Part shown: positions 2,321 to 55,277 of the stretch, in pieces
Layout of the letters: each line of letters opens with the position of its first letter
Position numbering within the stretch: position 1 is the first letter of the stretch
Assembly (NCBI GenBank): GCA_030710605.1
Contig: CP092877.1
Coordinates: 39,818,580-39,882,579 of the forward strand
DNA from: Cordylochernes scorpioides
Taxonomy: Eukaryota > Arthropoda > Arachnida > Pseudoscorpiones > Chernetidae
Length of the DNA: 64,000 nucleotides
Direction of reading: 5' to 3'
Made by a program: the position numbers and the translations under genes
Notes under the pieces: model-generated
Databases searched by the model: none
The model's input: the letters and a program-made list of their open reading frames with translations, nothing else
Told to the model about the DNA's origin: nothing

Positions 2321-2537
2321 AATTTCAAACTAATTTTCCATTCGAATTGATATAAAAAAAAAAATCAACACATTTAGTTTTACTATAAAATATTCTTAAC
2401 ACATACAACCGTTTTTTTTTAATTATTATTATTAACTGGGGAGCTACATATTAGAGACCTTCAAATAATTATTTTTAATTTTTTTCTAGTTTCAATAAAG
2501 AAAATCTTTCTTTATAAATCCAAAATATTAAGAAGTA

Positions 2538-2711
2538 CAGTAGAACCTCCCTTTAAAAGACACCTAATTGCAGAGCCAAATGTCCTTTAGGGAGAGGTGT
2601 CCTCTTACCGGAGGGTTGCTAAATTGTAAAAATGGTAATTTCGCAAATGAAAACTGTCCTTTGTGGAGAAGTGTCCACTAGCGGGGTGTCCACTAAAGGG
2701 AGATTCTACTG
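2538..2711. mobile_element. pogo/Tigger-like MITE
   Basis: Same family; ends CAGTAGAACCTCC and GGGAGATTCTACTG, flanked by TA. Partner in copy B at 52779-52952. Confidence 0.78.
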
Positions 2712-3016
2712 TAATATTTGACCAATATTCTTTCGTTTCTCCTCAAGAGCCTAAATTCACAGGATTCTAAATTTAACATTTATTATCGTCCAATCACTTT
2801 AAATTTCACATACACAGAACCTCTAAAGATAGATCATTTACAAAAATATGTACATAGCACTCGCTAGAAAATTCTCTTTTGCAATAGACTTTCGGTTATT
2901 TTACAAAGATGAGATCGCTATTAAAGGTGGTTATTCATCAATTGTGTCACTGATGGAAGGTTTAGCTGTAGATATTTGTGGATTTGTTTAATTTGGGTAG
3001 AAGATTTTAAAACTTA

Positions 3017-3054
3017 CTTGGCAACGGCCTCCCGGGACATCTTCAGGAAGATTG
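3017..3054 (-). CDS. Candidate internal exon 5 of the micro-exon gene
   Basis: On the minus strand, GGTTGCAG precedes 38 bases ending at a GTAAGT donor. In phase 0, following exon 4, it reads PIFLKMSREAVA. It leaves in phase 2. I could not identify the next exon with certainty. In copy B the deletion breakpoint falls exactly at this exon's donor and removes the exon. Confidence 0.4.
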
Positions 3055-3108
3055 GCTGCAACCACAATGTCAGATACAGAATGGTTAAAATGGAATATCT
3101 GTCCTCAC

Positions 3109-3141
3109 CTTCTCCTGAAGCTTGATCTTGACTTCGGCCAT
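3109..3141 (-). CDS. Candidate exon 4 of the micro-exon gene
   Basis: CTGTACAG acceptor, 33 bases reading MAEVKIKLQEK, and a GTGAGG donor. Phase 0 in and out, consistent with its neighbours. Its ATG could suggest a start codon, but the strong acceptor directly upstream and the phase agreement favour an internal exon. The charged, heptad-like content fits a coiled coil continuing from exon 3. Confidence 0.45.
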
Positions 3142-3655
3142 CTGTACAGACAAAAACACCAAAAAGATTATAATTTATTCATTTTAAAATTTATATATTT
3201 TATATTAATCAATTTGACGAAACCACTGAAATAAATTGTTGTTTTTAGTTTGTTTAAAACAATCAATTTACTTTACAATAAAACAACGATTTACTTTGAA
3301 AGATCAGCCATTATTTATTTTTATCTTCGGATAATTGATAAATAGATAAGGCAAATGATAAAGTTATCAATAATTTGTAAAGGATAAAATACTTTGAATA
3401 TTATTACAAAACTAATAAAGTATTTTAATTAATTAGAAAATCATGAATTTACCTATTTTTAAGTTTATATCTCTAGCGTCCATTACAAATTCACTACTGA
3501 AGAGACAAGCCCTTTCATTCAATAACTTATTGCAGTAAGGTCTATAGAGATAATATTTGATGATAATAATGAAAATAAACACATTAGCAGTAAATATATC
3601 TGTTACAAATTTCATCGATAGATGGTAATTGAATTTATAAATTTATTTGACTTAC

Positions 3656-3754
3656 TTGCCGGTCAAGGTCGTCCAGCAATAATTGATTTCTGATCAATTC
3701 CTGGATGAATTGGTCGGGAACAACTTCTTCCTCGACCTCAAGGATCTCTTCTTC
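3656..3754 (-). CDS. Candidate exon 3 of the micro-exon gene: acidic coiled-coil segment
   Basis: Minus strand: TTGTTGTTGTTCAG acceptor, 99 bases, GTAAGT donor. It has a single open phase (0 to 0). The 33 residues begin EEEILEVEEEVVPDQ and end LLLDDLDRQ; the other two frames contain stops. Joined by phase it follows exon 2 (SEEVLK) and leads into MAEVKIKLQEK. I do not recognise the protein. An acidic linker followed by an amphipathic helix is all that can be said. Copy B has lost this exon in a deletion of about 1 kb. Confidence 0.5.
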
Positions 3755-3928
3755 CTGAACAACAACAAGACAATTGATGTTGCTGTAAAAAAATCTATTT
3801 CTTCATCCATTTCAATGTTTATTTTATCTATGTTCTTAACTAAAATTTCAACCGGATCTCTTAAAAAAGTCTACATACCTTAACATACCTTGTTATTTAA
3901 TTAAAAAGGCATATATTGGAACAAAATA

Positions 3929-4101
3929 CAGTTAAACCTGTCTATAGCGCCCTCTCTTGGGTCTCACCAAAATAGGGTGCTATAGACAAGTCACTTTTAA
4001 TGTAAATATTTTACATTTTAATGTTTAAAATCGGGCGCTATAGAGAGAAAGGCGATATTTAGAGGGGGGGGGGGGGGGGGCGCTAAAGACAGATTTAACT
4101 G
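3929..4101. mobile_element. MITE of the CAGTTAAACCTGTC family
   Basis: Ends CAGTTAAACCTGTC and AGACAGATTTAACTG. The interior has TATAGCGCCCTCTCTTGGG and an inverted GGGCGCTATAGAGAG. A G run at about 4063-4080 may be an assembly or replication slippage site. A complete relative lies at 37273-37451 and a truncated one in copy B at 53265-53307. Confidence 0.75.
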
Positions 4102-4456
4102 CTTCACCTTGAAAAAGGTTGGCGTTCAGCCAACTGAAATAAATGATAAAATAAATGATATTTTGATCCAATATATTCCTTTTTAATTAAAGATTTATTT
4201 ATGGATTGTTTTATTTTCAAAACGATACCTTGTTATTTTATGATGCATTAGCGCGCCATCTGTTATGAAAATTCGAAACTATTATAGACGTATAGATGGA
4301 AAATTTGCCGGGGAGGATATTGATCTAAAGAGACAAGGGTCGCCTCTCCCGTCAAAATAGACGTCAAAACCAGACGCCATCTATTGACCGTCGCCGCAAT
4401 TAGCGGCCTCGGGTCGGTGACAAAGCCACAACACAAGCTTTGGAAAACTGAAAAGC

Positions 4457-4511
4457 GTCCACCTAGAGACAATGGTTTCGGGCTAATGGCCCTCGTCAGT
4501 CTAGGGCGGAC
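4457..4511 (-). ncRNA. Hammerhead ribozyme, left arm
   Basis: Minus strand, 5' to 3': stem I (GTCCGCCCTAGA), core CTGACGA, stem II GGGC-CATTA-GCCC, core GAAA, short stem III (ACC-AT-TGT), cleavage C, then TCTAGGTGGAC, which pairs with the stem I start. All invariant core positions (CUGANGA, GAAA) are present. Stem III has one weakened pair (C opposite U). This is a type I layout with a very short stem III. Confidence 0.75.
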
Positions 4512-4611
4512 TTTATTCCATGAGATCCACACGGGATCTAATGGAATCTTGACACCTCTTTGGCAGATTGTCAAGATTCCATTAGATCCCGTGTGGATCT
4601 CATAGAATAAA

Positions 4612-4666
4612 GTTAGCTCTAGACTGACGAGTGCCATTAGCCCCAAACCATGGTCTCTAGGTGGAC
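4612..4666 (+). ncRNA. Hammerhead ribozyme, right arm, core mutated
   Basis: Plus strand: CTCTAGA stem I, CTGACGA, GTGC-CATTA-GCCC, then CAAA instead of GAAA, ACC-AT-GGT stem III, C at the cleavage position, TCTAGGTGGAC stem I partner. The G12 to C change should abolish cleavage. Stem III and the cleavage site are perfect here, which complements the left arm. Confidence 0.65.
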
Positions 4667-4839
4667 GCTTTTCAGTTTTCCAAAGCTTGTGTTGTGGCTT
4701 TGTCACCGACACGAGGCCGCTAGTTGCGGCGACGGTCAATAGATGGCGTCTGGTTTTGACGTCTATTTTGACGGGAGAGGCGACAAAAATGTGATCTGTG
4801 TTTTCTTTATTTTAGGAAATAAATAAAGATTCTAATAAC

Positions 4840-4856
4840 CTTGAGGACTTCTTCGC
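4840..4856 (-). CDS. Candidate 17-bp micro-exon 2
   Basis: Minus strand: GTGTTGTAG acceptor, GCGAAGAAGTCCTCAAG, GTTATT donor. Exon 1 ends in phase 1 and this exon supplies the two missing bases, giving S-EEVLK, then phase 0 into exon 3. The same 17 bases are kept in copy B (55261-55277) with a GTAATT donor. Confidence 0.42.
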
Positions 4857-4939
4857 CTACAACACACAAAGGAACATAAGATTAGAACTAATGAATAAAT
4901 TTGCCTGAATGCGAATACAAGAACTTTACTTTCCATAAC

Positions 4940-5245
4940 ATGGGGATCAGTGGAAGGGTGGTCTAAACCATTGGTTTTTGATCGTTACGACCCGGGATCG
5001 AATCCCAAATTGGGCACTTTTTTTCTGATAAAAAAAAATGCTCAAATGACCCCCGATTCTTGCAAAAGTCCAACCCCACCAGCGAGTGCAAATAACCAAA
5101 CGGGACTCCTGCACATTTGTAAGTGCAAAAGTCGAACTCCTTTTCACATGTGTAGACATGTGGTGCACTTACAGAAAAAACAATTGCCAACTTCTACCCA
5201 CCATGATTATCATGGTCTGTACCACGTGTACTAGGGATAATAATA
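4940..5245 (+). mobile_element. tRNA-headed SINE
   Basis: Head has an A-box-like TGGTCTAAACC and a B-box-like GGGATCGAATCCC. The body has CCAACCCCACCAGCGAGTGC, AGTGCAAAAGTCGAAC and the palindrome CACATGTGTAGACATGTGG; it ends ACTAGGGATAATAATAAT. One of eight family members here; partner in copy B at 55364. Confidence 0.8.
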
Positions 5246-5521
5246 ATAAACTTTCAATATTAGCATCCTATGCTGTTTCGTATATAGATAAGTTGAATTA
5301 TTTTTATCTCATTTTTAGTCACCTTTCTTTATTAAAAGTAGAACCAGGATTCAAAATAACCATTCCCCTGTGGAGAGTGACAGCAGGTCACTGAAATGTC
5401 AGGAGTTAAATATATCATTGGTTGATGTGGCTGTGTGTTTTACCAAACTTTCTTTATTAACAGTGATTGTGAAAGCTCTCTAGTTTTAAATGAAATTTTG
5501 CATAAACATACATTTTAAAAA

Positions 5522-6174
5522 TCTATATATATAAAATTGAATGTTTGTCTGTCTGTTTGTTTGTTTGTTTGTACTCTATAGATTCAAAAACCATACATCC
5601 AATCGCCGTGAAATTTTGGGATATTATTAGGTATATCACCGGGAAGGTTTTTGAAAAATAATTTCCTGAATATCTTGAATATCCTTAGAGTTATTTGCAG
5701 ATTTGTATATTTAACTCTCAAGCAGCGCCCCCATTGTGACGATGTTAACAAGTTTTCTTATCACTAAGTTTGTTATCTTAAATATTATTTATCAAAAGTA
5801 AGATTATCTCAGGATGAAACGGCAATGTGACACGGGAAAAAATGTTCACTAGATAAAACTATGATTTTCTAATGTAGAAAATTAGGAAAGACAAAATTCA
5901 GGATGACACGGCACACAGGGGCCGGGAAAAAATGTTCACTTTATCGAGAGATTCAAATTTACGAGTTTCAAATTATCAAAATATATCTTTTTTTTTTTAA
6001 TAAGTTTTTAGAGAATTGTTTTAACAAATGTTCGCTAGACAAACCTTTACTCGGGTAAAACCCCGGGCGAAGCCGAGTACGTTTTATAAGTTTATAGAGA
6101 ATTGTTTTAACAAAATTTCGTTAGACAAACATTCACTCGGGTAAAACCCGGGCGAAGCCGGGCACATCCGCTAG
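5522..6174 (+). mobile_element. Non-autonomous Helitron in copy A with exact empty site in copy B
   Basis: Begins TCTATATATATAAAATTG after host A (5521). Ends with hairpin CCCGGGCGAAGCCGGG and CTAG (6171-6174) before host T. Copy B reads straight through the site (CATTTTAAAAATATAATTG, junction 55937/55938), with no target duplication. A (GTTT)n tract lies near the 5' end. The 3' hairpin region is present twice (about 6053-6082 and 6135-6174). No Rep/Hel coding. Confidence 0.95.
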
Positions 6175-6979
6175 TATAATTGATAAAAAAATTAAATATT
6201 TAAACGAACTCTTTCGAAGCTACTTTTTATAATTTAAAACTAGTTCTAGAGACCTTATACTGCAATGATCTTTTTACTGAAACGGGATGGCTCATCATTG
6301 GTGAACCCTTCTAGTGGTTTCGTTTGTTTAATCTCTGGACCGTTCTACTATAGTATTGGACTTCAAAATGTGTATCAAGAGGTCTGTGTACTGCATAAAG
6401 ATACTTTTTATAAAGGGCCCTGCTGCAGGTCTTGCGTTCCTCAATTGGTGCAACATGAAGTTTCGCCTTTTTACGTATTTTAATCTGATTTTTTCATGAT
6501 AATACGGTAAACGGTGTTAGTTATTGTGGAAATGTTCCTTTGAGAAGGTGGATTTTATAACCATTTCCTTTATTTTTCTTTAGGTTGGAGTTGAAGGTTT
6601 CTTCAGGCACCTTTTTTTTTCAGAGGATTTTTTTTTTGCTTAATTTCACAGATATAATTTTTTTTTCTTTTTTCCTTTATTATGTGCCTGAATGTGTACT
6701 TAGTAATATCAATATATTCTTATCTTTCATAATTTTAATAATTTGGGGTAAATGAGTATTTCTCACCGGAAAGTCTGAAAACGTAACGTTTTACAAAATA
6801 ACTTATAATTTAAACCATTTAAAATATTAAAAAACAGTTTTTTTTTTCATTAAATATAAATCAATGCTCTTTATTTTGAATAAATAAAACATCGCTCGAA
6901 TCACGCGTTTCTTTCGCGAGATACAGCTTTGAAAAATCATTATTTAAAAAAAGGAACACCCTCTGTATATATATATATA

Positions 6980-7725
6980 TGTAATAAGTTGAGGTTTGGT
7001 TGTTGACTCTCGCTATACTGTGTTAACCGAGAGGAACAGTCAGGATGGGGAGTTTTCCAGTACCTTTCTGCACCTTGGAAGACCTTTTACAATTCTCACA
7101 AAGTACAGGCAGTCGTGGTCGAGGCAGAGTGGAAAGCTTGGAAATGTCCACACAAAAAAAACGAAGACACAGTTGCACTAAGAAAGTTCCGTGAACAGAT
7201 AGAGTTGAGCTAGGAGCGAAAGATGGGGAGGTAGAAGTTTTCTTACTATTCTACGTGATGGATGAGATGGTTCTGAGGACGACCGACGTGGGCTCACACA
7301 GATGCTGCACTCACTGTGAAGTGACTGTAAAGGGACTGTATTTATAGGTTAAGACGGGGGGCCTTATGCGACAGGGGCCGTTTATGAGAAAGGGGCCTTG
7401 CATGTCACCAGGTGTGAGAGGGGGCTTTGCATTCCACCAGATGTGGAGTGTGGGTGGTCTTGGTCCATTTTTAGACCTTGTTGTGGGAATTCTAAATCTA
7501 TCTCGATTTTGACGTTATGACTTCTATCTCTTGCTTAGCTCAACTCTTAATCTATTACAGATTATTATTTATTTATCCTCAGTTTGTACAAATTACATTA
7601 CATATGATGATGTAAAGACACATGTCAATAATACGTATAATCATTTACAGATGTGTTTCTATTATACAACATTAAAATCTTATTATAAGTTATATACAAT
7701 ATGGGGTTGTTGGTTTAAATTACAA
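6980..7725 (-). mobile_element. 3' LTR of Gypsy element 1
   Basis: 746 bp, starting on the plus strand with TGTAATAAGTTGAGG and ending AAATTACAA. Aligns with the right LTR; differs by scattered substitutions and a short indel near 7615-7630. Confidence 0.88.
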
Positions 7726-9800: not shown

Positions 9801-11264
9801 CTAATTTACCTGTGTCGGGATGTCTGTAATTTTTACCAAAACAAGATCATTCACTTCGAAATGTGGTGTTCTGTGCTGCTTATCAAATGTTTCTTTATCT
9901 TTTTTATGCTTATTTTGAGTACGAGAGCTTGCTATCTCTCGAGCTGTATTTATTTCGGGGTATGGGTTAAGATGAGTTCTTAGATCTGGGGGGATAACAT
10001 TGAACATTAAGTAGGTAGGTGGAAAACTTGTGACAGAATGGGGTGTGTTATTGTACGTCTGAGTGACGCGCTTAACTAGTTGAGTCCAGGAAGCTTTCGG
10101 ATTTTCTAGATAAGCTAGTCTGAGCTTGCCTGTAATGGTCGCATTTAAGCGTTCTATTAGACCGTTTGCTTGTGGGTTATTGCTTGTGGTGAGTAGAGGT
10201 TGTATACCATGTGTTATTAGAAATTTGCGGAATTTTTCTGAGGTAAAAGCCGGCGCTCTGTCAGATAACAGACGTTTTGGAGATCCTTGCTGTAGTACCG
10301 TTTTGAGGGTTTGAATGTACGTTAGGGTACTGGTGGACTTCGATGGAAAGGTCCAAGCATATCGCGTTAAATGATCCAGTATTACGTGTAGATATGTCTT
10401 GGAGTGTCCATATTTCGAAAATCCAGCTATGGTATCTATAGAGATTAAGTCGAATGGTTGTTGAGGTGGTAGAATTTGTCCGAGGGCACCATAGGGTTTA
10501 CCTTTGGGCCTTTTAATGATTTGGCAGGTGTGACACGACTTGACAAATTTTTCTATAGATTTAGAGATACCTTTCCAGTAGTACTGGGCAGTGATTATGC
10601 GGGTCATCTGAGAGATGCCTGGGTGGTTATATTCTTGGTGAACTTTATTCATTAGATTATGTTGCAGGGTTTCGGGAATTATTATTTTAATTACACCTTT
10701 TCGGGTAATGGTATGGAAGCCGTTTGTATCAATGTTGAAGAGGGATGTTGTTGGTTGATGCTGTTTGATAATATCAGCACTGACAAATCCTACAAAGGGG
10801 TTTCGTGATAGCAAATCTGCCTCGTACTGTTGGCTGCCTTTGAGGTAGTGGATTTCGTAATTATAGGTAGATAGTCTCAGGCTCCATCTAAAGAGTCGTC
10901 CTGACGGATTTTTTTTAGTTTTAAGCCATTGTAAAGCCTGGTGATCTGTGTATATGGTGAATTTTATACCGGTGGGGTATATTCGGAATTTGTCTACACT
11001 TTCGACGATGGCGAGGCACTCGAGTTCGGAAACGGTGTAGTTTCTCTCATGTGCTCTAAGGGCGCGGCTGAAATATTGTACAGGATGTACTTGTCCGTCT
11101 GGATGTACCTGTTTGAGTATGCCTGCGATCCTTTGGGTGGATGCATCGCAATAAAGGCGGCATGGTAAACCGACTTGATACAAGTGTAGTACTGGTTTAC
11201 TGGTTAAACTCTCTTTGAGAGTGGTGAAAGCTTGTTGACAATCTGGGTCCCAATTCCATTTCAC
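9801..11264 (-). pseudogene. Gypsy Pol: RNase H and integrase
   Basis: 487 codons open. RNase H: LYCDASTQRIAGIL, then VSELECLAIV and IYTDHQALQWL (residues about 37-115). Integrase: H-H...CHTC zinc finger (about 215-255), core with LISIDTIAGF, LLSDRAPAFTS and NGLIERLNAT supplying the D,D,E triad. Upstream it is cut from RT by a TAA (near 11268). The C-terminus is lost by a one-base deletion near 9830, where element 2 (22612) keeps an extra G and stays in frame. Acts as retrotransposon replication and integration enzymes; dead here. Confidence 0.9.
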
Positions 11265-11270
11265 ATCTTT

Positions 11271-12281
11271 TTAAAGTAGTTTATTTAAAGGTGCTCGTAA
11301 GCGGGCATAATCTGGTATAAACTTATTATACACGTTCACTGCTCCTAAAAATGATTGTAACGTCTTTTGATTGGTAGGTGGTTTGATGGCATTTATGGTA
11401 TCAAGGTTGCGCGTCTGTGGTGCATAAGTACCTGCGGTAACAGTGTATCCTAAGAAATCTATATTTGTTTTAAAAAACGAACATTTGTTATAATTGAGTT
11501 TGATGTTTTCGTGTTGACACACCGCTAGAAATTGTTGTAGGTGTTGTAGATGATCCTCTAAGGTGTCAGAAAAAATAATGAAATCGTCGAAGTAATGGGT
11601 AACAAAATTTAGTTCATATTTTTGCATGACCTGGTTTATGGCACGATGGTATATCTGTGGCGAATTTTAAAATCCGTAAGGAAGTCTACAAAATTCGTAC
11701 TGACTATCTAACGTCACGAAAGCTAGTAGATTACGTGAGTTAGGTTCTACTTCCACTTGCCAATATGCGGATGCTATATCTACAGAAGAGTAGTATTTGG
11801 CTTTCGACAATTTGTCAAGAATGGTTTCTATTAATGGTAAAGGATGTACGTCTGGAGCGATGATTTCATTAAGTTTTCTGTAATCAATACAGAAACGTTT
11901 CGTTTTGTCACGTTTTGTAACAAGAGTTATTGGACTGGCATAAGGTGAGACTGACGGGGCAATAATTCCATGTTGGAGCATTTGCTCTATTTGGGTTTGT
12001 ATTTCTTGTTGGTCGTGTAGTGGCACTCTATATGGGCGAAATGCTATTATTTTATCTGTGGTGGTATTGATTTTTACCGGTGGTATGTTCAATTTAGGCA
12101 CATTGTATTTATTAGTAGAGAACACTTGCGAGAATTCATATAGAATTCGGTGGAGTTCGTGTGGACAATGTTCTAACTGAGGTGCCGCATTAGAAGGTAT
12201 AGAAATCTCAATATCATGGGTAGGAGATATAGTGGGTGAAACAATAGTGGGGGAACATATAATTGGGGTAGGGTCCGCCAC
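11271..12281 (-). pseudogene. Gypsy Pol: reverse transcriptase, with one nonsense codon
   Basis: Two frames in phase separated by one TAA (about 11668). RT motifs: RFCIDYRKLN, SSVDIASAYWQV, FCRLPYGF, then THYFDDFIIFS (YxDD-type catalytic box) and LGYTVTAGTY. The stop lies right after LPYGF, where the family normally has a lysine or similar, so the nonsense codon is probably a point change. The family assignment is certain from motif order. Confidence 0.9.
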
Positions 12282-12459
12282 GTGTAAACAGGACTGGTTC
12301 GAGGGGAAGGTGGTAAAAATAGCCGTTTCCCTCGGTTGAGTGGGACATAAATCCTGTTTGCACTTGGTGAACTTATAGACATTCTTTGGGAGAGCATCAT
12401 TCTTTTAATAAATTTGGAGATTATTAAAATCTATAATTAATTTAAATATTTTAAGGGTA

Positions 12460-12760
12460 TTAATAGATAAAATACCAAAAGGTAGTGAAGCTTCTATTAT
12501 AAAAAAAAAAAAATAGTTTTTGGGTGAGGTTACCTATTTTAAGTTTTAAAAATATATATCCAAGGGTATTTACATTGTGGGCTATTGCGTTTATAGTTAA
12601 ACTGTACTGATGGATAATAATTTTATATGGTAATCTATTTTCTATGGTTCTTAAAATATCCAAGTTAAGTATGTTAATAGATGCTCCCGTGTCTATTAAA
12701 AAGGGCAAATTTACATTTGGTGACAGTTCAGTCCATATTACGAGCTGTTCAACGAAAAAA
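12460..12760 (-). pseudogene. Gypsy aspartic protease fragment
   Basis: FLIDTGASINIL shows the DTGAS active-site motif, near residue 6 of the open frame. It is followed by hydrophobic strands and then a homopolymer-rich stretch (12488-12515) where the frame is probably shifted. It lies between gag and RT, as expected. Confidence 0.75.
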
Positions 12761-12770
12761 GGTTTCAGGT

Positions 12771-13742
12771 TTTCCTACCGTTGAGTTGCTCGCGGGGCTT
12801 GTAGAGTCGTCTCGGCTTGCAGCTTGGAATTGGGGAACAGGGCTCCGAGATTGGACTTTGGGCCGGGTACCAGATTTTGGTACAGTGGTTGTGCGTGGTC
12901 TGGCGCTGTAGACTTGGCGTGTTCTGTCCTGTGGGAACCGTTGTTCACACTGGGAGTGCCAGTGCATAGCATTGCAATACTTGCAAGGCGAGGGTGGGGG
13001 TGCAACTTGGTACGTTACACGTGATGACCGCTGGTTGTTGTACCGCGGTGGTGGGTTGTGGTAGGTTGGATGTGGGGCCTTGTCTACTTGGCGCTGGTAC
13101 GCTGCACTAATGGCACACTGAGTTCTCCTTATTCTTGACACTAGGTCAAACCATTCTTTAATGGTGTTTGGCTGCAACGTTGCGATTAATCGCTGGTCTG
13201 CGACGGGTAGTCCTTCGGTCAGAGAATCTATTAATATGTCGGCGGGTAGGTTTAATTTCATGCCCATTACCGTTTTGTTTTGGTAGTAGTCTTCTAGGGG
13301 CATTTGGGGTGTCAATTTGATGGCTAGGAAGCGTGGAAAACGACGCTTCTGTCGTTGTTGGGAATAAATCTATCAAGGTTTGGCGGACATCATTATAAAA
13401 TAACCTATCTAACCGTAGGCTTCGGAAATATTGGAGTGGCTTGCCTTGCAGGTAGTAGGGTAACTTGCGTAGGCGATCCGTGTAGGTCAGGTCAGCTCGG
13501 TCTGCTTGGGCACCGAAGTTGTCGAAAAAGCTCTGGGCTTCAAAGGTACCATCGTATGGACTCACATCTATCTCCCTGGGAGATCGGGTGATCAGCAGCT
13601 TACTCAGGGCATCGGCGATCTGTGTCAGCGGGTCTGCGGAGGTCCCTTGGGGCGGCGACGTTTCCTCCTCTTCAAATGTCGTCTCTTGTTGGGGAACAGA
13701 TAGCCCGGTCGCATCGTTGGACTGTTCGGTTTGCTCTTCCAT
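12771..13742 (-). pseudogene. Gypsy Gag with zinc knuckle, frameshifted
   Basis: ATG at 13742 opens a frame (MEEQTEQSNDATG...) with capsid-like sequence SPYDGTFEAQSFFDNF and PYYLQGKPLQYFR. The frame shifts near 13310, and the overlapping frame ends at about 12771 after a CKYCNAMHWHSQC knuckle (CX2CX3HX4C) and an S/P/R-rich tail. Forms the retrotransposon particle and binds its RNA when intact. It lies directly inside the 5' LTR. Confidence 0.82.
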
Positions 13743-13800
13743 CTTTGCACTTTCTCGCTTCTATCTGGCCTTCTTCGTTTTGGTTATCCTGTCGGCTAGC

Positions 13801-18175: not shown

Positions 18176-19499
18176 CGAGGGTTGTCCGTTAAATAAGTTC
18201 CACAGAGGTTTTTTCATACAGAAAAACAGGTTTATTTGCCCTGAACTATACATTTTCGAAAATATCAGACTTTTTCATTTTTCTACATATTCCCCGTTTC
18301 GTTCGACGCATTTTTGCATTCAGGACACCCACTTATGGAACCCAGAGTCAAAGAACTCTGCCACCTGGCCGCGTAGAAAGCCTAAAACCGCTTCTTCCAA
18401 CTCGTCATCGTCCTGGAATTGGGTTCCACCCAGTTTTTTCTTCAACTCGGGGAAGAAATGAAAGTCACTAGGAGCTACGTCCGGGCTGTAGGGTGGGTGT
18501 GACACCAATTCCCATCCAAATTCTTCGATGAAGGCGGTGGTTTGATGGGCGGTGTGCGGCCGAGCGTTGTCGTGGTGAAAACGCACCCCTTTGGTTAACA
18601 TCCCTCTCCTCTTGTTCTGAATCGCGCGTCGAAGTTGTTTCAAGGTCTCACAGTACCGGTTGGAATTGATTGTTGTACCCCGACGCATAAAGTCGCACAA
18701 CAATAGACCCTTTCGGTCCCAAAAGACGGTAGCGATAAGTTTCCCGGCAGAAAGTGTTTGTTTAAACTTTAGAGGTTTCGGCGAAGAAGTGTGCTTCCAT
18801 TGCTTGGATTGCTCCTTTGTCTCCGGTGTGGTATAGTGTACCCAGGTCTCATCACCAGTAACGATCGAATTCAAGAATTCCTCTCCGTCAGTTTTGTGGC
18901 AATCGAGAAATTTCTGGGCCGCATCAACCCACTGCCGTTTATGGTCTTCAGTCAGCATTTTCGGAACCCATCTTGCGCAGACCTTTGAATACCCTAAATG
19001 TTCATGCAAAATCTTGTCGATGGTGGTTTGCATTCAGGAACCAAATCGCAGAGCTTCCACGCAGTAACCCGTCGATCTTCAAGCATTGCCGCTTCGACTT
19101 TGGCAATGGTTTCGTCCGAAACCGATGGCGTCCAGCACGCGGTTCATCGTGGACGTCTATTCGGCCGTTTTCAAATTCTCTGACCCATCTGCGCACCATC
19201 CCGGAACTCATACACCCTTCTCCATACACTTGACAGAGTTCAGTATGAATGTCCTTCGCCGAATTCTTCTTTGCGGCCAAAAAGCGAATTACTGACCGTA
19301 ATTCACAGCTGGCGGGAGACACGAGGGGAAGCTCCATCACTAACGGCTGCTCAGCCAAAACTAAGCTTACCAGCGACGTGTCCTTGGTGGGAAATTGGAG
19401 TGGGGAGAACAAGCTACGAGCCCGTGCAGTCGGCTCGAGCCTAAAAGCGATCCTCATGACAGTGGTGCCCCGTGGAACTTATTTAACGGACAACCCTCG
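18176..19499 (-). mobile_element. mariner transposon
   Basis: Inverted ends CGAGGGTTGTCCGTTAAATA (continuing AGTTCCAC) at 18176 and its complement ending at 19499, flanked by TA. Contains a damaged mariner transposase. The right end is 6 bp from the LTR of Gypsy element 2. Confidence 0.93.
18281..19337 (-). pseudogene. mariner transposase, frameshifted
   Basis: N-terminal part MELPLVSPASCELRSVIRF with HTH-like RRWVREFENGR. The frame shifts near 19030-19130. The catalytic part is open from 19033 with VTGDETWVHY, HHDNARPHTA and YSPDVAPSDFHFF; the second and third D are 34 residues apart (DD34D). A TGA after KWVS (about 18320) precedes MQKCVE..., the usual mariner tail, so it is probably a premature stop. 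Cut-and-paste transposase, inactive here. Confidence 0.9.
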
Positions 19500-26624: not shown

Positions 26625-27347
26625 TTAGTCTTCGCCGCCGGTCATATTGAGAATACGCAGGATCATAAGGAACAGATTGACCATGTCGAGATAGATATTG
26701 AGAGCTGCGAAGATATATTCTTCGGGAGAGATGGAGTAAGCATGGCGTCCTGTGAGCATGAGTTGAGTATCATGGATAAGATAGACTGAGAACAGTATCG
26801 CTCCAGCCACACAGTAGATTAAGTGAAGAATCTTAATATGCACAAACATCAGCACAAAACCAGCAAGCAAGAACGCCAAGAGGAATACAATAAGAATTCC
26901 ATTCATCGTAGTAAAGTCGATGGAAGTCTGGAAGGCAAAGATGGTTAGAGAAAAACAAAGAATAGCTGTGATTGCTAGTGCAAGAAGGACTAATGCTGGA
27001 TCAGTTTGGGCAGCAACGCAGCCAAGAAGGAAAGCTTGAAGTAGAGTGAATGCTCCAAGACAAATGATATTGTTAGGGAAGGTTCTACGAACTTGCTCGC
27101 AGCATACAAGAACGAAGGTGAAGATGATGATAAGGACGAAGGCAATCAGAGGAAGTTCAGGATGCTGCACTACAAACTCCCGCAGGTCTGAGACAAGGGT
27201 GAATGCAGCTATGATAGCTATGGTCGCGACAATCTGAGCTAGGACGATGGAGTACACCTTGCGGACAAATCCAAGGCGCACCTTAGGACAAGAGAACGAT
27301 TCTTCAAATGTGTCGCAAGCCATTTTGTGGTTCGGATTATATGAAGT
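26625..27347 (-). CDS. Lifeguard/TMBIM family membrane protein, N-terminus in the gap
   Basis: Open frame ending at TAA 26625-26627; a possible ATG at 27323 (AAAATGG context) gives 232 residues beginning MACDTFEESF. Seven hydrophobic segments are visible: VYSIVLAQIVATIAI, LIAFVLIIIFTFVLV, ICLGAFTLLQAFLLG, VLLALAITAILCFSL, GILIVFLLAFLLAGF, LIYCVAGAILFSVYL and AALNIYLDMVNLFLM. LIHDTQLML and NIYLDMVN carry the two aspartates that form the pH-sensing pair in the family. The family (Bax inhibitor-1 like; GRINA/FAIM2/TMBIM1 branch) acts in ER/Golgi calcium leak and protection from cell death. Relatives usually have a proline/tyrosine-rich cytoplasmic N-terminus; the frame stays open (SYNPNHK) into the N gap, so the true start may lie there. 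The exact paralogue cannot be set. Confidence 0.9.
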   Translation of the reverse strand, partial: TSYNPNHKMACDTFEESFSCPKVRLGFVRKVYSIVLAQIVATIAIIAAFTLVSDLREFVVQHPELPLIAFVLIIIFTFVLVCCEQVRRTFPNNIICLGAFTLLQAFLLGCVAAQTDPALVLLALAITAILCFSLTIFAFQTSIDFTTMNGILIVFLLAFLLAGFVLMFVHIKILHLIYCVAGAILFSVYLIHDTQLMLTGRHAYSISPEEYIFAALNIYLDMVNLFLMILRILNMTGGED

Positions 27348-27447
27348 NNNNNNNNNNNNNNNNNNNNNNNNNNNNNNNNNNNNNNNNNNNNNNNNNNNNN
27401 NNNNNNNNNNNNNNNNNNNNNNNNNNNNNNNNNNNNNNNNNNNNNNN
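27348..27447. other. Scaffold gap (100 N)
   Basis: Exactly 100 N, a placeholder gap of unknown true size. It falls upstream of the Lifeguard frame and between the two divergent genes, so both 5' ends may be affected. Confidence 0.97.
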
Positions 27448-27505
27448 GAGGCACAAGTTGTCAAGTGGAATCTGTGTTAGAAGGAAATAATTAGGGACAA
27501 TTAAA

Positions 27506-36507: not shown

Positions 36508-37272
36508 AAACTACCATGTAAATCCCTTGCCAGAGCTGACTGCTATAAGGCCCCTGGTGGTGGATAGAGGAGTGACCTTCAGATATGAAGACCAGCTGTG
36601 AAACAAGCAGAATAACTCTGCCAAATAAGCAGTCACGGACCACACACACACACACAACAGCAGCATTGTTAGAAGAGGAGTAGACCTCTTTAAAAATCCT
36701 GACTTCCACTGTCCAGGTTGATGGACTTCAGCAAGGGTCCCTCTTCAGGGACACGGAGGAGCTGAGTGTATTCATGTTAGAGTCGGCAGCAAAGGCGTCT
36801 GCTTCCATGTTAGGAACAGCCTCAAATTACAGGCAAAGTCAGAATTTCACCAAAGTGTGCCTGGATCATGGTGCCATGACAACAAAATCTGCACCCCTAC
36901 ATCCCATTCCATGATATCACATGGAATTCGTGTAATCTTTATACAAGGGGATAAGAAACAACACCATGTAAATTCAGTTATATCTCCCTACATCTCATCT
37001 ATAACACTGAGTGTTTGCCAGAACTCCATTGCTGACTGCTGACATCAAAGAAGGGGATGCTGAGGTACTGGAGAAAACTTATGTCCACAAGGTAACTGCA
37101 TCTCACTTTGGCCCACTAACTTGGCAGACTTTAGTTGAAAACCTATGAAAATTCTATGTGCTGCCTTTTAATTGAAACTCCTTGTGGAAATTAAAAAATT
37201 AGTCCCAATATATACATTGTTATTTTAATCTTTTTGGTTTCCCATAGAGTCACAATTATGGAATTATATATA

Positions 37273-37451
37273 CAGTTAAACCTGTCTATAGCGCCCCCTC
37301 TTGGGACTCACCAAAATAGGGTGCTATAGAGAGGGGGTGCTATAGACAGGTCACTTTTAATGTATATCTCGTATCGTACTACGTATTTAAAATCGGGCGC
37401 TATAGAGAGGAAGGCACTATTTAGAGGGGGCGCTATAGACAGGTTTAACTG
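37273..37451. mobile_element. MITE of the CAGTTAAACCTGTC family, complete
   Basis: Perfect-looking inverted ends CAGTTAAACCTGTCTATAGC and GCTATAGACAGGTTTAACTG, flanked by TA. Inner GGGCGCTATAGAGAGGAAGG. Confidence 0.85.
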
Positions 37452-37774
37452 TATATATATTTTTTGAATGATTAACTCTTATTTTGGATCAAAAATATTT
37501 ATTATAACTTCCAATATTTCAATGAGGGCTGTTCGCCTATCTTTCTCGGGGATTCAATTTCACATATATATATATGTGAAGAAATATTAGGAAAAAAAAA
37601 ACTAATAAAAAGGTCAGGTGTTGATATTAAAAACAAAGAAGGCATATCTTGACCAGGAGCACATGTTCTTTTTAGATGGCAGAGCGCCATCTAGTGGAAC
37701 AGAAATCGACTAAACGTTGATTTAGCCTGTTCCCTGATATTTGACCAACCCAATTTCTTGATAAATAAAGAAAA

Positions 37775-37826
37775 GCCATCCACAAACACATTTTGGGCTG
37801 TTGGCCCTCATCAGCATGGAGCAGGC
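37775..37826 (-). ncRNA. Hammerhead-like sequence, degenerate
   Basis: Minus strand: CCATG, CTGATGA, stem GGGC-CAACA-GCCC, then AAAA in place of GAAA, then TGTGTTTGTGGATGG. Stem II is perfect and G12 is changed. Shares GGGCCAACAGCCC with 54071-54098. Confidence 0.5.
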
Positions 37827-38105
37827 TGTACCACTGCGACCAAAATCTTTTGTTTCAGAGGCTTCCTGAGAAATCTTTGTTGGAAGAGAAAATTTCAAGA
37901 ATAATAACCCCTAAAAATGTGATGACCTATTAAAATCTAACTATATTATGTAAGAAAGGGTGAAATGTTTCTTTTTAATAGAGGACTGTTATTATATATA
38001 GGCTTTTGGACCTCACAGTTCTTTGTAAATTGTAAACTTTGTAATTTATAAAAATTTAAAACAAAAAAGTTTGAAATTTGTGCCGGTCAGAGGACAATGA
38101 AGGTA

Positions 38106-40485: not shown

Positions 40486-41801
40486 CAGGGTCCATTATGA
40501 AAGAAATGAGCATTTACTGGCAAAATACATTTATTGATCGTAATTTGTGCAAATGTTCAATATTCTTCAAAATACATTCCTCCTGCATCAATACACTTGC
40601 GGAGACGCGTTTGCCACGCCTGAAAGGCATCCTGAAACTCCTCGACAGGAATGCTTCTCAGGAACGTTGTAACATGGTGTTGGATGTTTTCCACGGTTTC
40701 CCAATGTTTTCCTTTCATCTCTCTCTTGAGTCGCGGAAACAAAAAGAAGTCACATGGAGCTAAGTCGGGACTGTAAGAGGGGTGAGAGATCACCGGGGTT
40801 TTGCTCCGGGCCAGGAAGTTGAAAATGGTGAAGGCTGTGTGGCTTGTGGCATTGTCATGGTGGAGCTTGACCGTCTCTTCAATGTCAGTCCTCACTCGTG
40901 CGATCCGGCGTTTCAATCTCCTGAGCACCTCCAGGTAAAAGACTGAGTTTACAGTTTGTCCCTGCGGCACAAACTCACAATGGACTATTCCTCGGATGTC
41001 AAAGAAGACAATGATAATCTTTTTGATGCGCGACTTGCTCATTCGCGCTTTCTTGGGGCGTGGGGATGATTTTGTGTGCCATGCACAGCTCTGCCTTTTC
41101 GACTCTGGCTCGTATTCAAACATCCAGGATTCGTCTCCGGTTACTACAGAGTTCAGAAAGTCCGGTTCATTTTGAATCAAATCCAACAATTCTTGACAGC
41201 GCAAAACTCTAAGTTCTTTCTGGTCTTGCTTCAACACTTTCGGCACAAGCTTCGCACAGACCTTACGCATTTGCAGATCCTCGGTCACTATCCCATGTAC
41301 CACAAATGTGGACATGTGTAATGTGTCAGCAATTTGCTGGATGCTTAATCGATGGTCGGTACGCAAAACTTCGAGCACACGATCCACCTTCTCGTCAGTT
41401 CTGGCCGTTGTTGGGCGTCCTGAACGGGGTTCGTCGGCGACCTCCTCCCGGCCCTCCTTGAACGCCTTGTGCCACTACCCAAACTGTGATCTTGAAATGC
41501 AATCATCCTTGAAGGCTTTTTGCAGCATCTGGAATGTATCGGTTGCATTTTTTCCAAGCCTCACGCAAAACTTTATGGCGTATCGTTGTTCAAGCGAACG
41601 CTCCATCGCGCTATGTTACAAAAGTTGAAAACACACTTCAAGCGGAGGCATGTATCTCCCCTCACACTGCTTGAACTCAACTGATGACCGGATTTATTGA
41701 AAGGGCATATCCCTCCACCACATTACCCACGGTTTTACCATGCTGCCATTTATCGTCATGTCACAATAACATTTTGCTCATTACTTTCAAAATGGACCCT
41801 G
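40486..41801 (-). mobile_element. mariner transposon nested in a MITE
   Basis: Inverted ends CAGGGTCCATTATGAAAGAA and TTTCAAAATGGACCCTG with TA on each side. Flanking sequence (CAGTAAAACACAGC at about 40403; GGGGTTTTACTG at about 41883) is the two halves of another MITE. Confidence 0.93.
40557..41606 (-). pseudogene. mariner transposase, near-intact with one nonsense codon
   Basis: From ATG 41606, MERSLEQRYAIKFCVRLGKN opens the DNA-binding domain; DEPRSGRPTTARTDEKVDRV leads to the linker. The only obvious break is TAG in SQFG*WHKAFKEG near 41475. After it 276+ codons are open with VVTGDESWMF, LHHDNATSHTAF and YSPDLAPCDFFLF (DD34D). Relatives include the transposase domain fused in SETMAR. 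One point change from a full frame, so recently active or still translated in part. Confidence 0.92.
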
Positions 41802-45637: not shown

Positions 45638-46054
45638 TTTTTTTTTTTTTTTTACAATTTCAAAAATCATTTATATTAAAATATATGTGCTTTTCCTGTC
45701 TATGTACAGATTTATGGTCTATGTACACAATTATACAAGTATGTATACAAGTTATTTGCAAATTGCGTGGCAAATTTGCCCTTTCGCTCGCAAGCAGCGC
45801 CTCTAGCGGTGAAGATAGGAGGTAATATCAGCCGACCTAATGGACATGTAAAACATGTTTTAACAGGACATAGAGAAAAATCTGGAAAATATATTTTTCG
45901 GATTTTTAGTCAAAAAAAAATAAATTGACAGGTTCTGGGGAAAAGTAGTTGTTTTTTATTCAGAAAATGATGATGACAATATTGCTGTATCATTAATATA
46001 TACAATTATCAGCGTCATGCACAATTCTTTCTTAATTCTGTCACCGTTTGCTTT

Positions 46055-46118
46055 TGGTTCAGTGGTAGAATGCTCGCCTGCCACGCGGGCGCCCCGGGTT
46101 CGATTCCCGGCCGATGCA
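46055..46118 (+). ncRNA. tRNA-Gly(GCC)-like block, unit 2
   Basis: As in unit 1, but with an intact anticodon arm (CTCGC-CTGCCAC-GCGGG) and T arm. The 5' acceptor strand is replaced by TTGCTTTT. A T run ends transcription. Confidence 0.62.
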
Positions 46119-46529
46119 TTTTTTTTACAATTTTAAAAATCATTTATATTATTAAAATATATGTGCTTTTCCTGTCTATGTACAGATTTATGGTCTATGT
46201 ACACAAGTATACAAGTATGTATACAAGTTATTTGCAAATTGCGTGGCAAATTTGCCCTTTCACTCACAAGCAGCGCCTCTAGCGGTGAAGATGGGAGGTA
46301 ATATCAGCTGACCCAATGGACATGTAAAACGTGTTTTAACAGGACATAGAGAAAATCTGGAAAATATATTTTTCGGATTTTTAGTCAAGAAAAATAAATT
46401 GACAGGTTCTGGGAAAAAAGTAATTTTTTAATCAGAAAATGATGATGACAATAATGCTGTATCATTAAAATATACAAGTATTATCAGCGTCATGCACAAT
46501 TCTTTCTTAATTCTGTCACCGTTTGCTTT

Positions 46530-46593
46530 TGGTTCAGTGGTAGAATGCTCGCCTGCCACGCGGGCGCCCCGGGTTCGATTCCCGGCCGATGCA
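46530..46593 (+). ncRNA. tRNA-Gly(GCC)-like block, unit 3
   Basis: Same as unit 2, followed by about 18 T. Confidence 0.62.
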
Positions 46594-47306: not shown

Positions 47307-47377
47307 CCATCGGTGGTTCAGTGGTAGAATGCTCGCCTGCCACGCAGGCGGCCCGGGTTCGATTCCCGGCCGATGCA
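47307..47377 (+). tRNA. tRNA-Gly(GCC), nearly complete, probable pseudogene
   Basis: 71 bases from CCATCGGTGGTTCAGTGGTA to TTCCCGGCCGATGCA. All arms and the GCC anticodon are present. Base 1 is C instead of G (C-C mismatch at the acceptor end) and the anticodon stem has one change (GCAGG). Followed by a run of about 18 T. Upstream TCTGTCACCGTTTGCTTTTG is shared with the array, so this is the fuller ancestor-like copy. Function is uncertain. Confidence 0.65.
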
Positions 47378-48440: not shown

Positions 48441-48887
48441 TCAGGAGCTTAAAGCCGCCTTGAATCTAGACAGATCCCTGCCATTTGGGGAGTTCATGTT
48501 CAGAACATGTTTGATGATAATGTCGAAGAATTTGTCGAGAAGAATCTTGTCTTCAGGTGTGAGTAGCCCGAGGAGGTGCTCCGTTTCTTCTTCGTAATAG
48601 ACCGTGAGTATGATATCCATCCTGACCACATTATTCTTGTTATATATGGAGTGCAGGAATTCTCGATCCTTCAATCGGATGAGTAACTTTTCTATGTCCA
48701 CATCGCCCTCAGGAGTGAGAGCTATAAGGGGTGCAGGAGCGGTCAGGAGCTCATGGGTCATCGGGGTAAGTATTAGTAGCGGTGTAGTAGATGGTATATA
48801 TGGTCCTAAGACAATATATAGAAAAATAATCAGCCATCTTGCAGTAGACGTTTCGCTGTTTAAATTGTGAAAGAGGAAGACGGCCAT
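48441..48887 (-). CDS. Hypothetical protein C-terminal part, downstream of the repeat region
   Basis: Minus-strand frame of 148 codons ending at 48441. The last 90 residues look like a folded, charged protein: DVDIEKLLIRLKDREFLHSI, VRMDIILTVYYEEE, LGLLTPEDKILLDKFFDIII and ending DLSRFKAALSS. The first residues overlap the final, decayed minisatellite units in another frame. If the gene is real, the repeat-coded part (48751-50115) is probably joined to this by splicing; CTTGTCTTAG-like acceptor sequence exists near 48810. I do not recognise the family. Confidence 0.45.
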   Translation of the reverse strand: MAVFLFHNLNSETSTARWLIIFLYIVLGPYIPSTTPLLILTPMTHELLTAPAPLIALTPEGDVDIEKLLIRLKDREFLHSIYNKNNVVRMDIILTVYYEEETEHLLGLLTPEDKILLDKFFDIIIKHVLNMNSPNGRDLSRFKAALSS

Positions 48888-50115: not shown

Positions 50116-50370
50116 ATTTGCGGCAGATATTTCGCCGCCTTAGTGGAGGAGCAGCCATGTTGCGGCAGATGTTTCGCCGCCTTAGGTGGTGGAGGAGGAA
50201 AGCCATATTTGCGGCAGATGTTTCGCCGCCTTAGTGGAGGAGGAGGAGCAGCCATGTTGCGGCGGATGTTTCGCCGCCTAGGTGGGGGAGGAGCAGCCAT
50301 GTTGCTGCAAATGTTTCGCTGCTTAGGTGGTGGAGAAGGAGGAGCAGCCTGGTTGTCGCAAGTTATTTGC
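48886..50370. repeat. Minisatellite, about 28 units of 45-60 bp
   Basis: Unit core GCAGATGTTTCGCCGCTTAG, then GGTGGTGGAGGAGGAGCAGC and CATGTTGCG. GCGGCAGATGTTTCGCCGC can form a 5-bp hairpin in every unit. Variation is mainly in the number of GGT/GGA triplets. Right-hand units (50020-50300) have an extra base (CCGCCTTAG). Confidence 0.95.
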
Positions 50371-52689: not shown

Positions 52690-52778
52690 TATTAGAGACC
52701 TTCAAATAATCATTTTTAATTTTTTTCTAGTTTCAATAAAGAAAATCTTTCTTTATAAATCCAAAATATTAGGAAGTA

Positions 52779-52952
52779 CAGTAGAACCTCCCTGTAAAAG
52801 ACACCTAATTGCAGAGCCAAATGGCCTTTAGGGAGAGGTGTCCTCTTACCGGAGAGTTGCTAAATTGTAAAAATGGTAATTTCGCAAATGAAAACTGTCC
52901 TTTGTGGAGAGGTGTCCACTAGCGGGGTGTCCACTAAAGGGAGATTCTACTG
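52779..52952. mobile_element. pogo/Tigger-like MITE
   Basis: Copy B partner of 2538-2711. Confidence 0.78.
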
Positions 52953-53309
52953 TAATATTTGACCAATATTCTTTCGTTTCTCCTTCAAGAGCCTAAATTC
53001 ACAGGATCCTAAATTTAACATTTATTATTGTCCAATCACTTTAAATTTCACATACACAGAACCTCTAAAGATAGATCATTTACAAAAATATGTACATAGC
53101 ACTCGCTAGAAAATTCTCTTTTGCAAAAGACTTTCGGTTATTTTACAAAGATGAGATCGCTATTAAAGGTGGTTATTCATCAATTGTGTCACTGATGGAA
53201 GGTTTAGCTGTAGATATATTTGTGGATTTGTTTAATTTGGGAAGAAGATTTTAAAACTTACATTTTAATGTTTAAAATCGGGCGCTATAGAGAGAAAGGC
53301 GCTATTTAG

Positions 53310-53590
53310 AGGGGGGGATCTAACACGGGGTCTAATGGAATCTTGACACCTCTTTGACAGATTGTCAAGATTCCATTAGATCCCGTGTGGATCTCATAGA
53401 ATAAAGTCCGCCCTAGACTGACGAGTGTCATTAGCCCGAAACCATGGTCTCTAGGTGGACGCTTTTCAGTTTGCCAAAGCTGGTGTTGTGGCTTTGTCAC
53501 CGACCCGAGGCTGCTAGTTGCGGCGACGGTCAATAGATGGCGTCTGGTTTTAGACGTCTATTTTGACGGGAGAGACGACCCTTGTCTCTT
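53310..53590. repeat. Half palindrome with hammerhead, copy B
   Basis: Contains the centre (TCTTGACACCTCTTTGACAG) and right arm of the 4339-4784 palindrome, ending GACGGGAGAGACGACCCTTG. The left arm has been lost next to the deletion. Confidence 0.85.
53406..53460 (+). ncRNA. Hammerhead ribozyme, copy B arm
   Basis: GTCCGCCCTAGA, CTGACGA, GTGT-CATTA-GCCC, GAAA, ACC-AT-GGT, C, TCTAGGTGGAC. All core bases are present and stems I and III pair well; stem II has one U-C mismatch. The best preserved core of the three. Confidence 0.78.
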
Positions 53591-53911: not shown

Positions 53912-53948
<37 letters not shown>

Positions 53949-54070
53949 TAGTATATATATAAGCGACTATACATATGTATATTACGCAAATAAAATTCTC
54001 CTCAATGCCTGACCTTTTCTATGACCCAGCTAACTTCGAACATCCTTTGATTAAAAAAGCCTGCACCACG

Positions 54071-54110
54071 TTGACGAGGGCCAACAGCCCGAAACGCGTT
54101 CGTGTTTAGC
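54071..54110 (+). ncRNA. Hammerhead-like sequence
   Basis: TTGACGA (C3 changed), stem GGGC-CAACA-GCCC, GAAA, then ACGCG-TT-CGTGT as a stem III. No convincing stem I partner. A decayed relative of the ribozyme at 37775-37826. Confidence 0.45.
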
Positions 54111-54324
54111 TTTTGGTTTCCATCTAGAAAACGCTAATGTTAGTGGTCAGGATATGCCTAATTTTCTGGCTTTCAGTCACCACCTTGCATTTCTTGGGTC
54201 CTTTATCTTTAGTAATGCGATAAGACAAATATGCCTAATTTGTTTTTAATATCAACACCTGACCTTTTTATTTATTATTATTTTTTTCCACATTAAAAAT
54301 ATATTTAGTTATTTTTATAAGTAA

Positions 54325-55260: not shown

Positions 55261-55277
55261 CTTGAGGACTTCTTCGC
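55261..55277 (-). pseudogene. Micro-exon 2 in copy B
   Basis: Identical 17 bases to 4840-4856 with acceptor GTGTTGTAG and donor GTAATT. Exons 3-5 of this copy are deleted, so the gene copy is broken. Confidence 0.5.

What the first reader, a model, noticed from the sequence alone, without database searches (positions are those of the whole stretch)
4339..4784. Palindromic repeat with a hammerhead ribozyme in each arm
The left arm (minus, 4457-4511), right arm (plus, 4612-4666) and copy B arm (plus, 53406-53460) share CTGACGA, stem II around CATTA, GAAA, a minimal stem III ACC-AT-GGT, C at the cleavage position and complementary stem I strands. Each copy carries a different single defect (stem III pair, G12 to C, stem II pair). 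That implies an intact ancestral ribozyme. A transcript from either strand would carry one. Type I hammerheads with short stem III are known in Penelope-like elements and animal retrozymes, but an inverted dimer layout is unusual.
Basis: partly seen in the sequence, partly recalled or inferred. Interest (0 to 1): 0.85.

Follow-up and report, generated by a model that had tools for sequence, protein, structure and literature searches.

The report
Ribozyme retroelement with Penelope insertion signature
The palindrome is one insertion of a short non-coding mobile element that carries a self-cutting RNA motif, is present in thousands of copies in this animal genome, and looks as if it was inserted by the enzyme of a different mobile element (Penelope-like), which suggests how such ribozyme elements may move.

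Summary
The hammerhead motifs are real; the left arm (minus strand) has every core base and stem pair tested. The exact 32-nt core occurs 8,774 times in the host genome, reversed control 0. The palindrome is one insertion of a non-coding family, here called RZ1 (320-bp unit); window copies A and B are the same insertion, duplicated. Of 55 non-redundant RZ1 insertions examined, 37 are simple head-to-head inversions; in 34 of these one outer end lies at unit site a (237-248) and the other at site b (268-294), typically 34 nt apart. Arms of one insertion resemble each other more than arms of different insertions (0 of 2,000 permutations); segments can exceed one unit; many copies sit between duplicated targets. 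Penelope-like elements (PLEs) in the same genome show the same head-to-head form and two end positions about 35 nt apart. Published PLE work reports two internal start sites, cutting of both strands and AT-rich targets (PMC11167929). Best reading: a retrozyme-type element whose circular or multimeric RNA is inserted by PLE-type machinery. Cleavage, circles and the partner PLE were not shown. The loci examined are the best-scoring ones, so long copies are over-represented.

The parts
4291..4784 (.). RZ1 insertion A: minus-oriented arm 4291-4554 (outer end at site b), plus-oriented arm 4552-4784 (right end missing)
   Evidence: mapping on the 320-bp unit
4453..4517 (-). hammerhead of the left arm, no defect; expected cut after the C at 4468
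4606..4670 (+). hammerhead of the right arm, G12 to C and a stem II mismatch
4291..4327 (-). tail: stretch between site b (4291) and site a (about 4328) at the left end of A
   Evidence: unit coordinates
4552..4554 (.). inner junction of the two arms (unit 11 / 314), shared with copy B
53323..53590 (.). RZ1 insertion B: minus-oriented remnant 53323-53348, plus-oriented arm 53346-53590 (outer end at site a, followed by a TA run)
53400..53464 (+). hammerhead of copy B, one stem II mismatch
37565..37875 (.). copy of a second ribozyme family (RZ2), both orientations; decayed hammerhead at 37771-37832 minus
54053..54287 (+). fragments of RZ2; hammerhead with C3 changed at 54053-54114

Best explanation
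RZ1 is a non-coding, retrozyme-type retroelement with a 320-nt unit and a type I hammerhead. Step 1 (inferred): a transcript through a direct dimer is cut by its hammerheads into unit-length RNA and closed into a circle; uncut multimers may also serve. Step 2 (inferred from insertion anatomy): a PLE-type reverse transcriptase with GIY-YIG endonuclease cuts both strands of AT-rich DNA and starts one cDNA from each cut end on this RNA, one at site a and one at site b, about 34 nt apart, in and beside a hairpin. Step 3 (inferred): the two cDNAs run on, sometimes past one unit, and are joined, giving a head-to-head inverted insertion with a tail at one end and a duplicated target. The palindrome is a mark of how the element was inserted, not a device to put a ribozyme on each strand.
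For: Shown: 34 of 37 simple inverted insertions have one end at a and one at b, 1 is b/b, 2 are truncated, 0 are a/a. Target duplication score 9 or more in 26 of 37 against 39 of 400 mismatched flank pairs; flanks 77.5% AT. Arms of one insertion are closer to each other (mean 0.055 against 0.073; 0 of 2,000 permutations) and agree at polymorphic sites in 142 of 169 comparisons, 83.5 expected, so both arms come from one event. 51 of 101 segments exceed 320 nt, longest 559; successive turns agree at polymorphic sites in 73 of 81. Among the first 100 exact cores listed on contig C1, neighbours under 1 kb apart are 9 (-,+), 0 (+,-) and 3 direct at 319 bp (picked by eye). PLEs in the genome: 146 GIY-YIG matches of 150 scored, 11 pairs under 5 kb apart, each (-,+) (by eye). 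One PLE family stops at two positions about 35 nt apart, and pairs L062, L064 and L084/L092 have one end of each kind. Predicted folds put site a in an unpaired stretch of a hairpin and b 3' of its stem in RZ1, RZ2 and the PLE. Ribozyme: 56 of 73 regions without defect. In print: PMC11167929 (parts 1-2 of 4) and PMC3846280 (passages).
Against: No RNA, enzyme or circle was seen. No PLE among the 30 GIY-YIG loci shares RZ1 sequence apart from a weak ribozyme-core match that lies in RZ2, so the partner is unknown. In PMC11167929 dead ribozyme mutants still inserted and no reads began or ended at the cut site, so the ribozyme may not be needed; that work also saw no difference in start site between strands. 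Loci were the best-scoring ones, which over-represents long copies. Some duplications lie in TA runs and could be chance. 14 of 55 loci show one orientation only and 4 are complex (two of these, L004 and L041, hold a + followed by a -). Core positions are only slightly better kept than the rest (0.984 against 0.959, P 0.034; core plus stems P 0.07), and there is no covariation in 39 copies. The hairpins are single-sequence predictions without a shuffle control.
Confidence: 0.78

Rival explanations
1. RZ1 is a PLE that lost its coding part: its unit is a shrunken pseudo-LTR moved in trans by an intact relative from linear multimeric transcripts, and the hammerhead is a passenger.
For: PLE-like ends and form; a PLE of this genome carries a hammerhead-like motif upstream of its ends (read by eye in L088 near 2070-2110); PMC11167929 finds the ribozyme dispensable in vitro; PMC3846280 (passages) reports a host gene moved in trans between PLE pseudo-LTRs.
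Against: Segments over one unit run into another RZ1 unit, not into a PLE reading frame; RZ1's ribozyme has a 2-bp stem III and looks canonical rather than minimal; no PLE with RZ1 sequence among 30 loci.
Confidence: 0.17
2. RZ1 is a fold-back DNA transposon (MITE) with long inverted ends, and the hammerhead is incidental.
For: Long inverted arms and AT-rich targets.
Against: The two ends differ by about 34 nt in 34 of 37 insertions, duplications vary (about 9-19 bp), the inner junction falls all round the unit, and segments exceed one unit.
Confidence: 0.03
3. The hammerhead likeness is chance.
For: No Rfam gathering-score match for any copy searched; one unrelated 2-defect hit in the window (43841 minus).
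Against: 0 of 20 shuffles gave a hit with 0 or 1 defect; 56 of 73 genomic regions have no defect; a second family with unrelated flanks scores as Hammerhead_HH9, 28.0 bits, below its gathering score of 52.
Confidence: 0.02

Closest known systems
Metazoan non-LTR retrozymes (PMC7229834: parts 1-2 of 6 and passages read; PMC7761336: passages read)
   Same: Type I hammerhead in a non-coding unit of about 170-450 nt, many copies, direct repeats of one unit, predicted self-paired circle
   Different: Described there as direct tandem repeats; RZ1 is mostly head-to-head inverted with unequal ends. RNA circles not tested here.
Penelope-like elements (PMC3846280: passages read; PMC11167929: parts 1-2 of 4 and passages read)
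   Same: Head-to-head inverted form, a 30-40 bp tail at one end, short target duplications, AT-rich targets, hammerhead motif
   Different: RZ1 has no RT or endonuclease frame found; its ribozyme has a short stem III rather than the minimal form
Hammerhead viroids (recalled; abstracts in listings only)
   Same: A hammerhead on each strand of a self-paired RNA, as the palindrome would give
   Different: RZ1 is genomic DNA; here the two-strand layout is best explained by insertion; RNA-to-RNA replication was not examined

Membership tests
Type I hammerhead ribozyme | Conserved core CUGANGA / GAAA / C17 with stems I-III, open at stem I | tested here: met
   left arm 0 defects; 56 of 73 genomic regions 0 defects, 14 one, 3 two
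Type I hammerhead ribozyme | Score over Rfam's gathering threshold | tested here: not met
   copy B 18.4 of 34 bits; no hammerhead match to RZ1 at E up to 5 in 8 loci
Type I hammerhead ribozyme | Self-cleavage | not testable with these tools
   needs in vitro transcription
Type I hammerhead ribozyme | Covariation of stem pairs | tested here: inconclusive
   no change on both sides in 39 distinct copies; too little divergence
Metazoan non-LTR retrozyme | Non-coding unit of a few hundred bp in many copies, including direct tandem units | tested here: met
   320-bp unit; 8,774 exact cores; direct copies at 319 bp; longest stop-to-stop frame 99 codons in three long segments
Metazoan non-LTR retrozyme | Low GC (below 50%, or below 45% in a figure legend of PMC7229834) | tested here: inconclusive
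   49.1% for the L004 unit
Metazoan non-LTR retrozyme | Expression as linear and circular unit-length RNA | not testable with these tools
   no RNA data
Penelope-like element | Frame with RT and GIY-YIG endonuclease | tested here: not met
   longest stop-to-stop frame 99 codons in three long RZ1 segments; a 182-codon open frame crosses insertion A and was not searched
Penelope-like element | Inverted head-to-head repeats with a 30-40 bp tail at one end and a short target duplication | tested here: met
   34 of 37 simple insertions; 26 of 37 with duplication score 9 or more against 39 of 400 controls
Fold-back DNA transposon / MITE | Identical fixed ends and fixed-length duplication | tested here: not met
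   ends differ by about 34 nt; duplications vary in length

The most novel reading that the evidence does not exclude
Animal retrozymes are satellites of Penelope-like elements: a ribozyme-made RNA circle is the direct template, and the PLE enzyme uses start site a for one DNA end and start site b for the other in each insertion, so the PLE 'tail' records two-ended priming rather than an optional extension.
Probability: 0.5. Interest if true: 0.78.

Novelty: new variant of a known kind. Interest (0 to 1): 0.66.

Why it matters
PMC7761336 (passages) says that metazoan retrozymes show no conserved motif that would help deduce which element's machinery they use, and names PLEs as likely candidates because they co-occur. 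RZ1 insertions carry such a signature: head-to-head arms, a tail at one end, duplicated AT-rich targets, and a hairpin round the start site like that predicted for a PLE of the same genome. This makes the partnership testable with one purified protein and one 320-nt RNA, and suggests that the PLE tail reflects one start site per DNA end. In ten searches of an open-licence library I found no title, abstract or read passage reporting this in retrozymes; subscription papers and repeat databases were not searched.

Tried and rejected
Chance hammerhead: rejected by shuffles and genomic copies. MITE: rejected by unequal ends and variable duplications. Three independent window copies: rejected; A and B are one duplicated insertion. 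Linear ribozyme-cut monomer as the only template: disfavoured, since inner ends are spread round the unit rather than gathered at the cut site and 51 of 101 segments exceed one unit. Covariation: none, copies too alike. Copies elsewhere: none with the exact patterns used in viral contigs or genome contigs, none in phages. Host species: the 120 listed matches to a lifeguard-family protein are a mix of arthropods, molluscs and others at about 45-55% identity, which does not settle it.

Rows dropped: 5 of 60 RZ1 loci as the same insertion or place as another (L025 with L001, L031 with L030, L047 with L034, L053 with L039, L057 with L056, judged by shared flanks or coordinates). 2 of 75 ribozyme regions left out of the defect count for not being 65 nt (L014 decayed, L041). 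Close pairs were picked by eye. PLE ends (30 rows): 10 stop at 2143-2155, 8 at 2182-2190, 12 earlier (two at a locus edge); the query ended at 2190, so one search repeated it to 2230 on 11 loci. L078 and L087 are near-identical loci. L071 agrees only approximately, L091 is interrupted. RZ2: one sharp end at 252-255, a looser one at about 284-315; five inverted pairs read by eye (L022, L041, L056 twice, L073) have one end of each kind; L010 and L088 agree less clearly. For L084/L092 I expected the second end from the first; L092 had already been fetched but not yet examined, and the expectation was not written down beforehand, so my notebook words 'predicted before fetching' are wrong.

Full report
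WHAT IS THERE. The palindrome is real: arms 4339-4554 and 4569-4784, 216 nt, 96% complementary, 14 nt between. A geometric type I hammerhead scan of the window finds the left arm (minus strand) without defect, copy B with one and the right arm with two, plus one unrelated hit with two (43841 minus) and two with three; 20 dinucleotide shuffles gave none with 0 or 1 defect, 2 with two and 46 with three. The motif has 6 bp of stem I, an inner loop, 4 more bp, a 4-bp stem II with loop CATTA, and a 2-bp stem III with a tetraloop. Rfam gives only a sub-threshold Hammerhead_1 match to copy B (18.4 bits against 34, E 0.019), no hammerhead at E up to 10 for the left arm, and none for RZ1 at E up to 5 in 8 loci.

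A FAMILY. The host genome is held (2.62 Gb, 24 contigs; window at C15:39818580-39882579). The exact 32-nt core occurs 4,362 + 4,412 = 8,774 times and 12,620 + 12,771 = 25,391 times with up to 3 mismatches; the reversed control is 0 both times. Sixty loci were cut from two searches that scored 40 candidates each, of 4,095 and 3,893. They show a 320-bp unit, here called RZ1. Of 75 ribozyme regions in 55 loci, 73 are full length: 56 have no defect, 14 one, 3 two; 48 of 55 loci have at least one without defect. Core positions are kept slightly better than the rest of the unit (0.984 against 0.959, P 0.034; core plus stems P 0.07), weak evidence of selection. There is no covariation among 39 distinct copies.

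A AND B ARE ONE EVENT. Blocks 2449-3017, 4011-4070, 4785-5536 and 6175-6983 recur at 52690-53261, 53258-53317, 55206-55951 and 55938-56742. A and B share the inner junction (unit 11/314), which no other simple insertion in the set has within 3 nt. They are best read as one insertion carried by a segmental duplication and then damaged differently. A keeps the left end (site b, 4291), B the right end (site a, 53590).

HOW INSERTIONS ARE BUILT. Of 55 non-redundant insertions, 37 are simple (-,+), 8 (-) only, 6 (+) only, 1 (-,-) and 3 complex; none is (+,-) alone, though two complex loci contain a + followed by a -. In 34 of the 37, one outer end is at site a (237-248) and the other at site b (268-294); one is b/b, two are truncated, none is a/a. 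A target duplication scoring 9 or more is seen in 26 of 37 against 39 of 400 mismatched flank pairs; these are 9-19 bp long, some in TA runs; flanks are 77.5% AT. Inner junctions fall all round the unit. The arms of one insertion are closer to each other than to arms of others (mean 0.055 against 0.073; 0 of 2,000 permutations) and agree at polymorphic sites in 142 of 169 comparisons against 83.5 expected. Of 101 segments, 51 exceed 320 nt, the longest 559; successive turns differ at 202 of 3,356 positions and agree at polymorphic sites in 73 of 81. The loci were chosen by similarity to queries of 225 and 300 nt, so long copies are over-represented. A listing not chosen by length agrees: among the first 100 exact cores on C1, neighbours under 1 kb apart are 9 (-,+), 0 (+,-) and 3 direct at exactly 319 bp.

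THE PENELOPE LINK. A GIY-YIG search gives 146 matches of 150 scored (17,015 candidates); 11 pairs lie under 5 kb apart, each (-,+), that is head-to-head (by eye). L088 holds an RT fragment and a GIY-YIG frame in opposite orientations. Copies of its 3' region stop at two positions about 35 nt apart: of 30 rows, 10 at 2143-2155, 8 at 2182-2190, 12 earlier. A hammerhead-like motif lies just upstream in L088 (near 2070-2110, read by eye). Inverted pairs L062, L064 and L084/L092 have one end of each kind; L071 agrees approximately; L091 is interrupted. In RZ1, RZ2 and this PLE the predicted fold puts site a in an unpaired stretch inside a hairpin, with site b 3' of the stem (single sequences, no shuffle control). 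In print (PMC11167929, parts 1 and 2 of 4 and passages), a lizard PLE protein cuts and extends both strands, prefers AT-rich DNA, and starts reverse transcription at two adjacent internal sites, the stretch between them being the genomic tail; dead ribozyme mutants still inserted. PMC3846280 (passages) describes rotifer PLEs with an inverted pseudo-LTR, 8-10 bp duplications and a 31-bp tail optionally at one of the inverted pseudo-LTRs, most often head-to-head, and proposes self-priming.

MECHANISM. The best-supported account is that RZ1 RNA is the template for PLE-type, two-ended target-primed reverse transcription, one cDNA starting at a and one at b, the cDNAs then being joined. Shown here: anatomy, linkage of the arms, unequal ends, duplications, runs over one unit, and the same form in PLEs of this genome. 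Inferred: the PLE partner, circles, and the order of steps. A circular template is favoured because segments hold unit sequence only, can pass one full turn and stop anywhere, but linear multimers remain possible. A transcript of 4317-4784 is predicted to fold into one long hairpin (MFE -418.3; 88% of right-arm bases paired to the left arm), hiding the ribozyme; the 320-nt circle is predicted to be well paired (z -5.0 against 100 shuffles). Source places are more likely the direct partial dimers.

KNOWN OR NEW. Type I hammerhead retrozymes in animals are known (PMC7229834), as is the PLE insertion form, including a tail at one end. PMC7761336 (passages) says animal retrozymes show no motif revealing their helper and suggests PLEs from co-occurrence. 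In ten searches I found no report of PLE-type ends in retrozymes. So: a new variant of a known kind, with a testable answer to an open question. A second family, RZ2 (283 candidates, 40 scored), is also inverted, with a sharp end and a looser one 30-60 nt on; two copies lie in the window.

LIMITS. No RNA evidence, no named species, no partner PLE for RZ1 among 30 loci compared, and a similarity-biased sample of loci.

Noticed in passing
window 37565-37875 and 54053-54287; L088 2170-2700: A second hammerhead family (RZ2), also inverted, with Hammerhead_HH9 scores below threshold (28.0 of 52 bits in L088).
   Followed up: partly
window 2449-6983 and 52690-56742: Segmental duplication inside the window, 95.7-97.7% identical in its three long blocks, with different gaps in each copy.
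   Followed up: partly
window 3926-4101, 37270-37451, 53258-53317: A short element with inverted ends (CAGTTAAACCTGTCTATAGCGCC...), probably a MITE.
   Followed up: no
window 48828-50368: Minisatellite-like block, GC-rich for this window, open in several frames on both strands.
   Followed up: no
window 46050-46118, 46525-46593, 47307-47377: Three tRNA matches; the first two are identical in sequence as aligned, lie in a tandem duplication and lack two acceptor-stem bases.
   Followed up: no
window 9801-13760, 18320-19478, 40557-41474, 51415-52452: Retroelement pol pieces with RT, RNase H and integrase domains, two mariner-type transposases and one Tc1-type transposase (Pfam).
   Followed up: no
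window 26625-27476: Lifeguard/Bax1-I family coding stretch on the minus strand, running into a gap of N at 27348-27447.
   Followed up: partly
window 43841 minus: Hammerhead-like hit with two defects in the geometric scan, probably chance.
   Followed up: no
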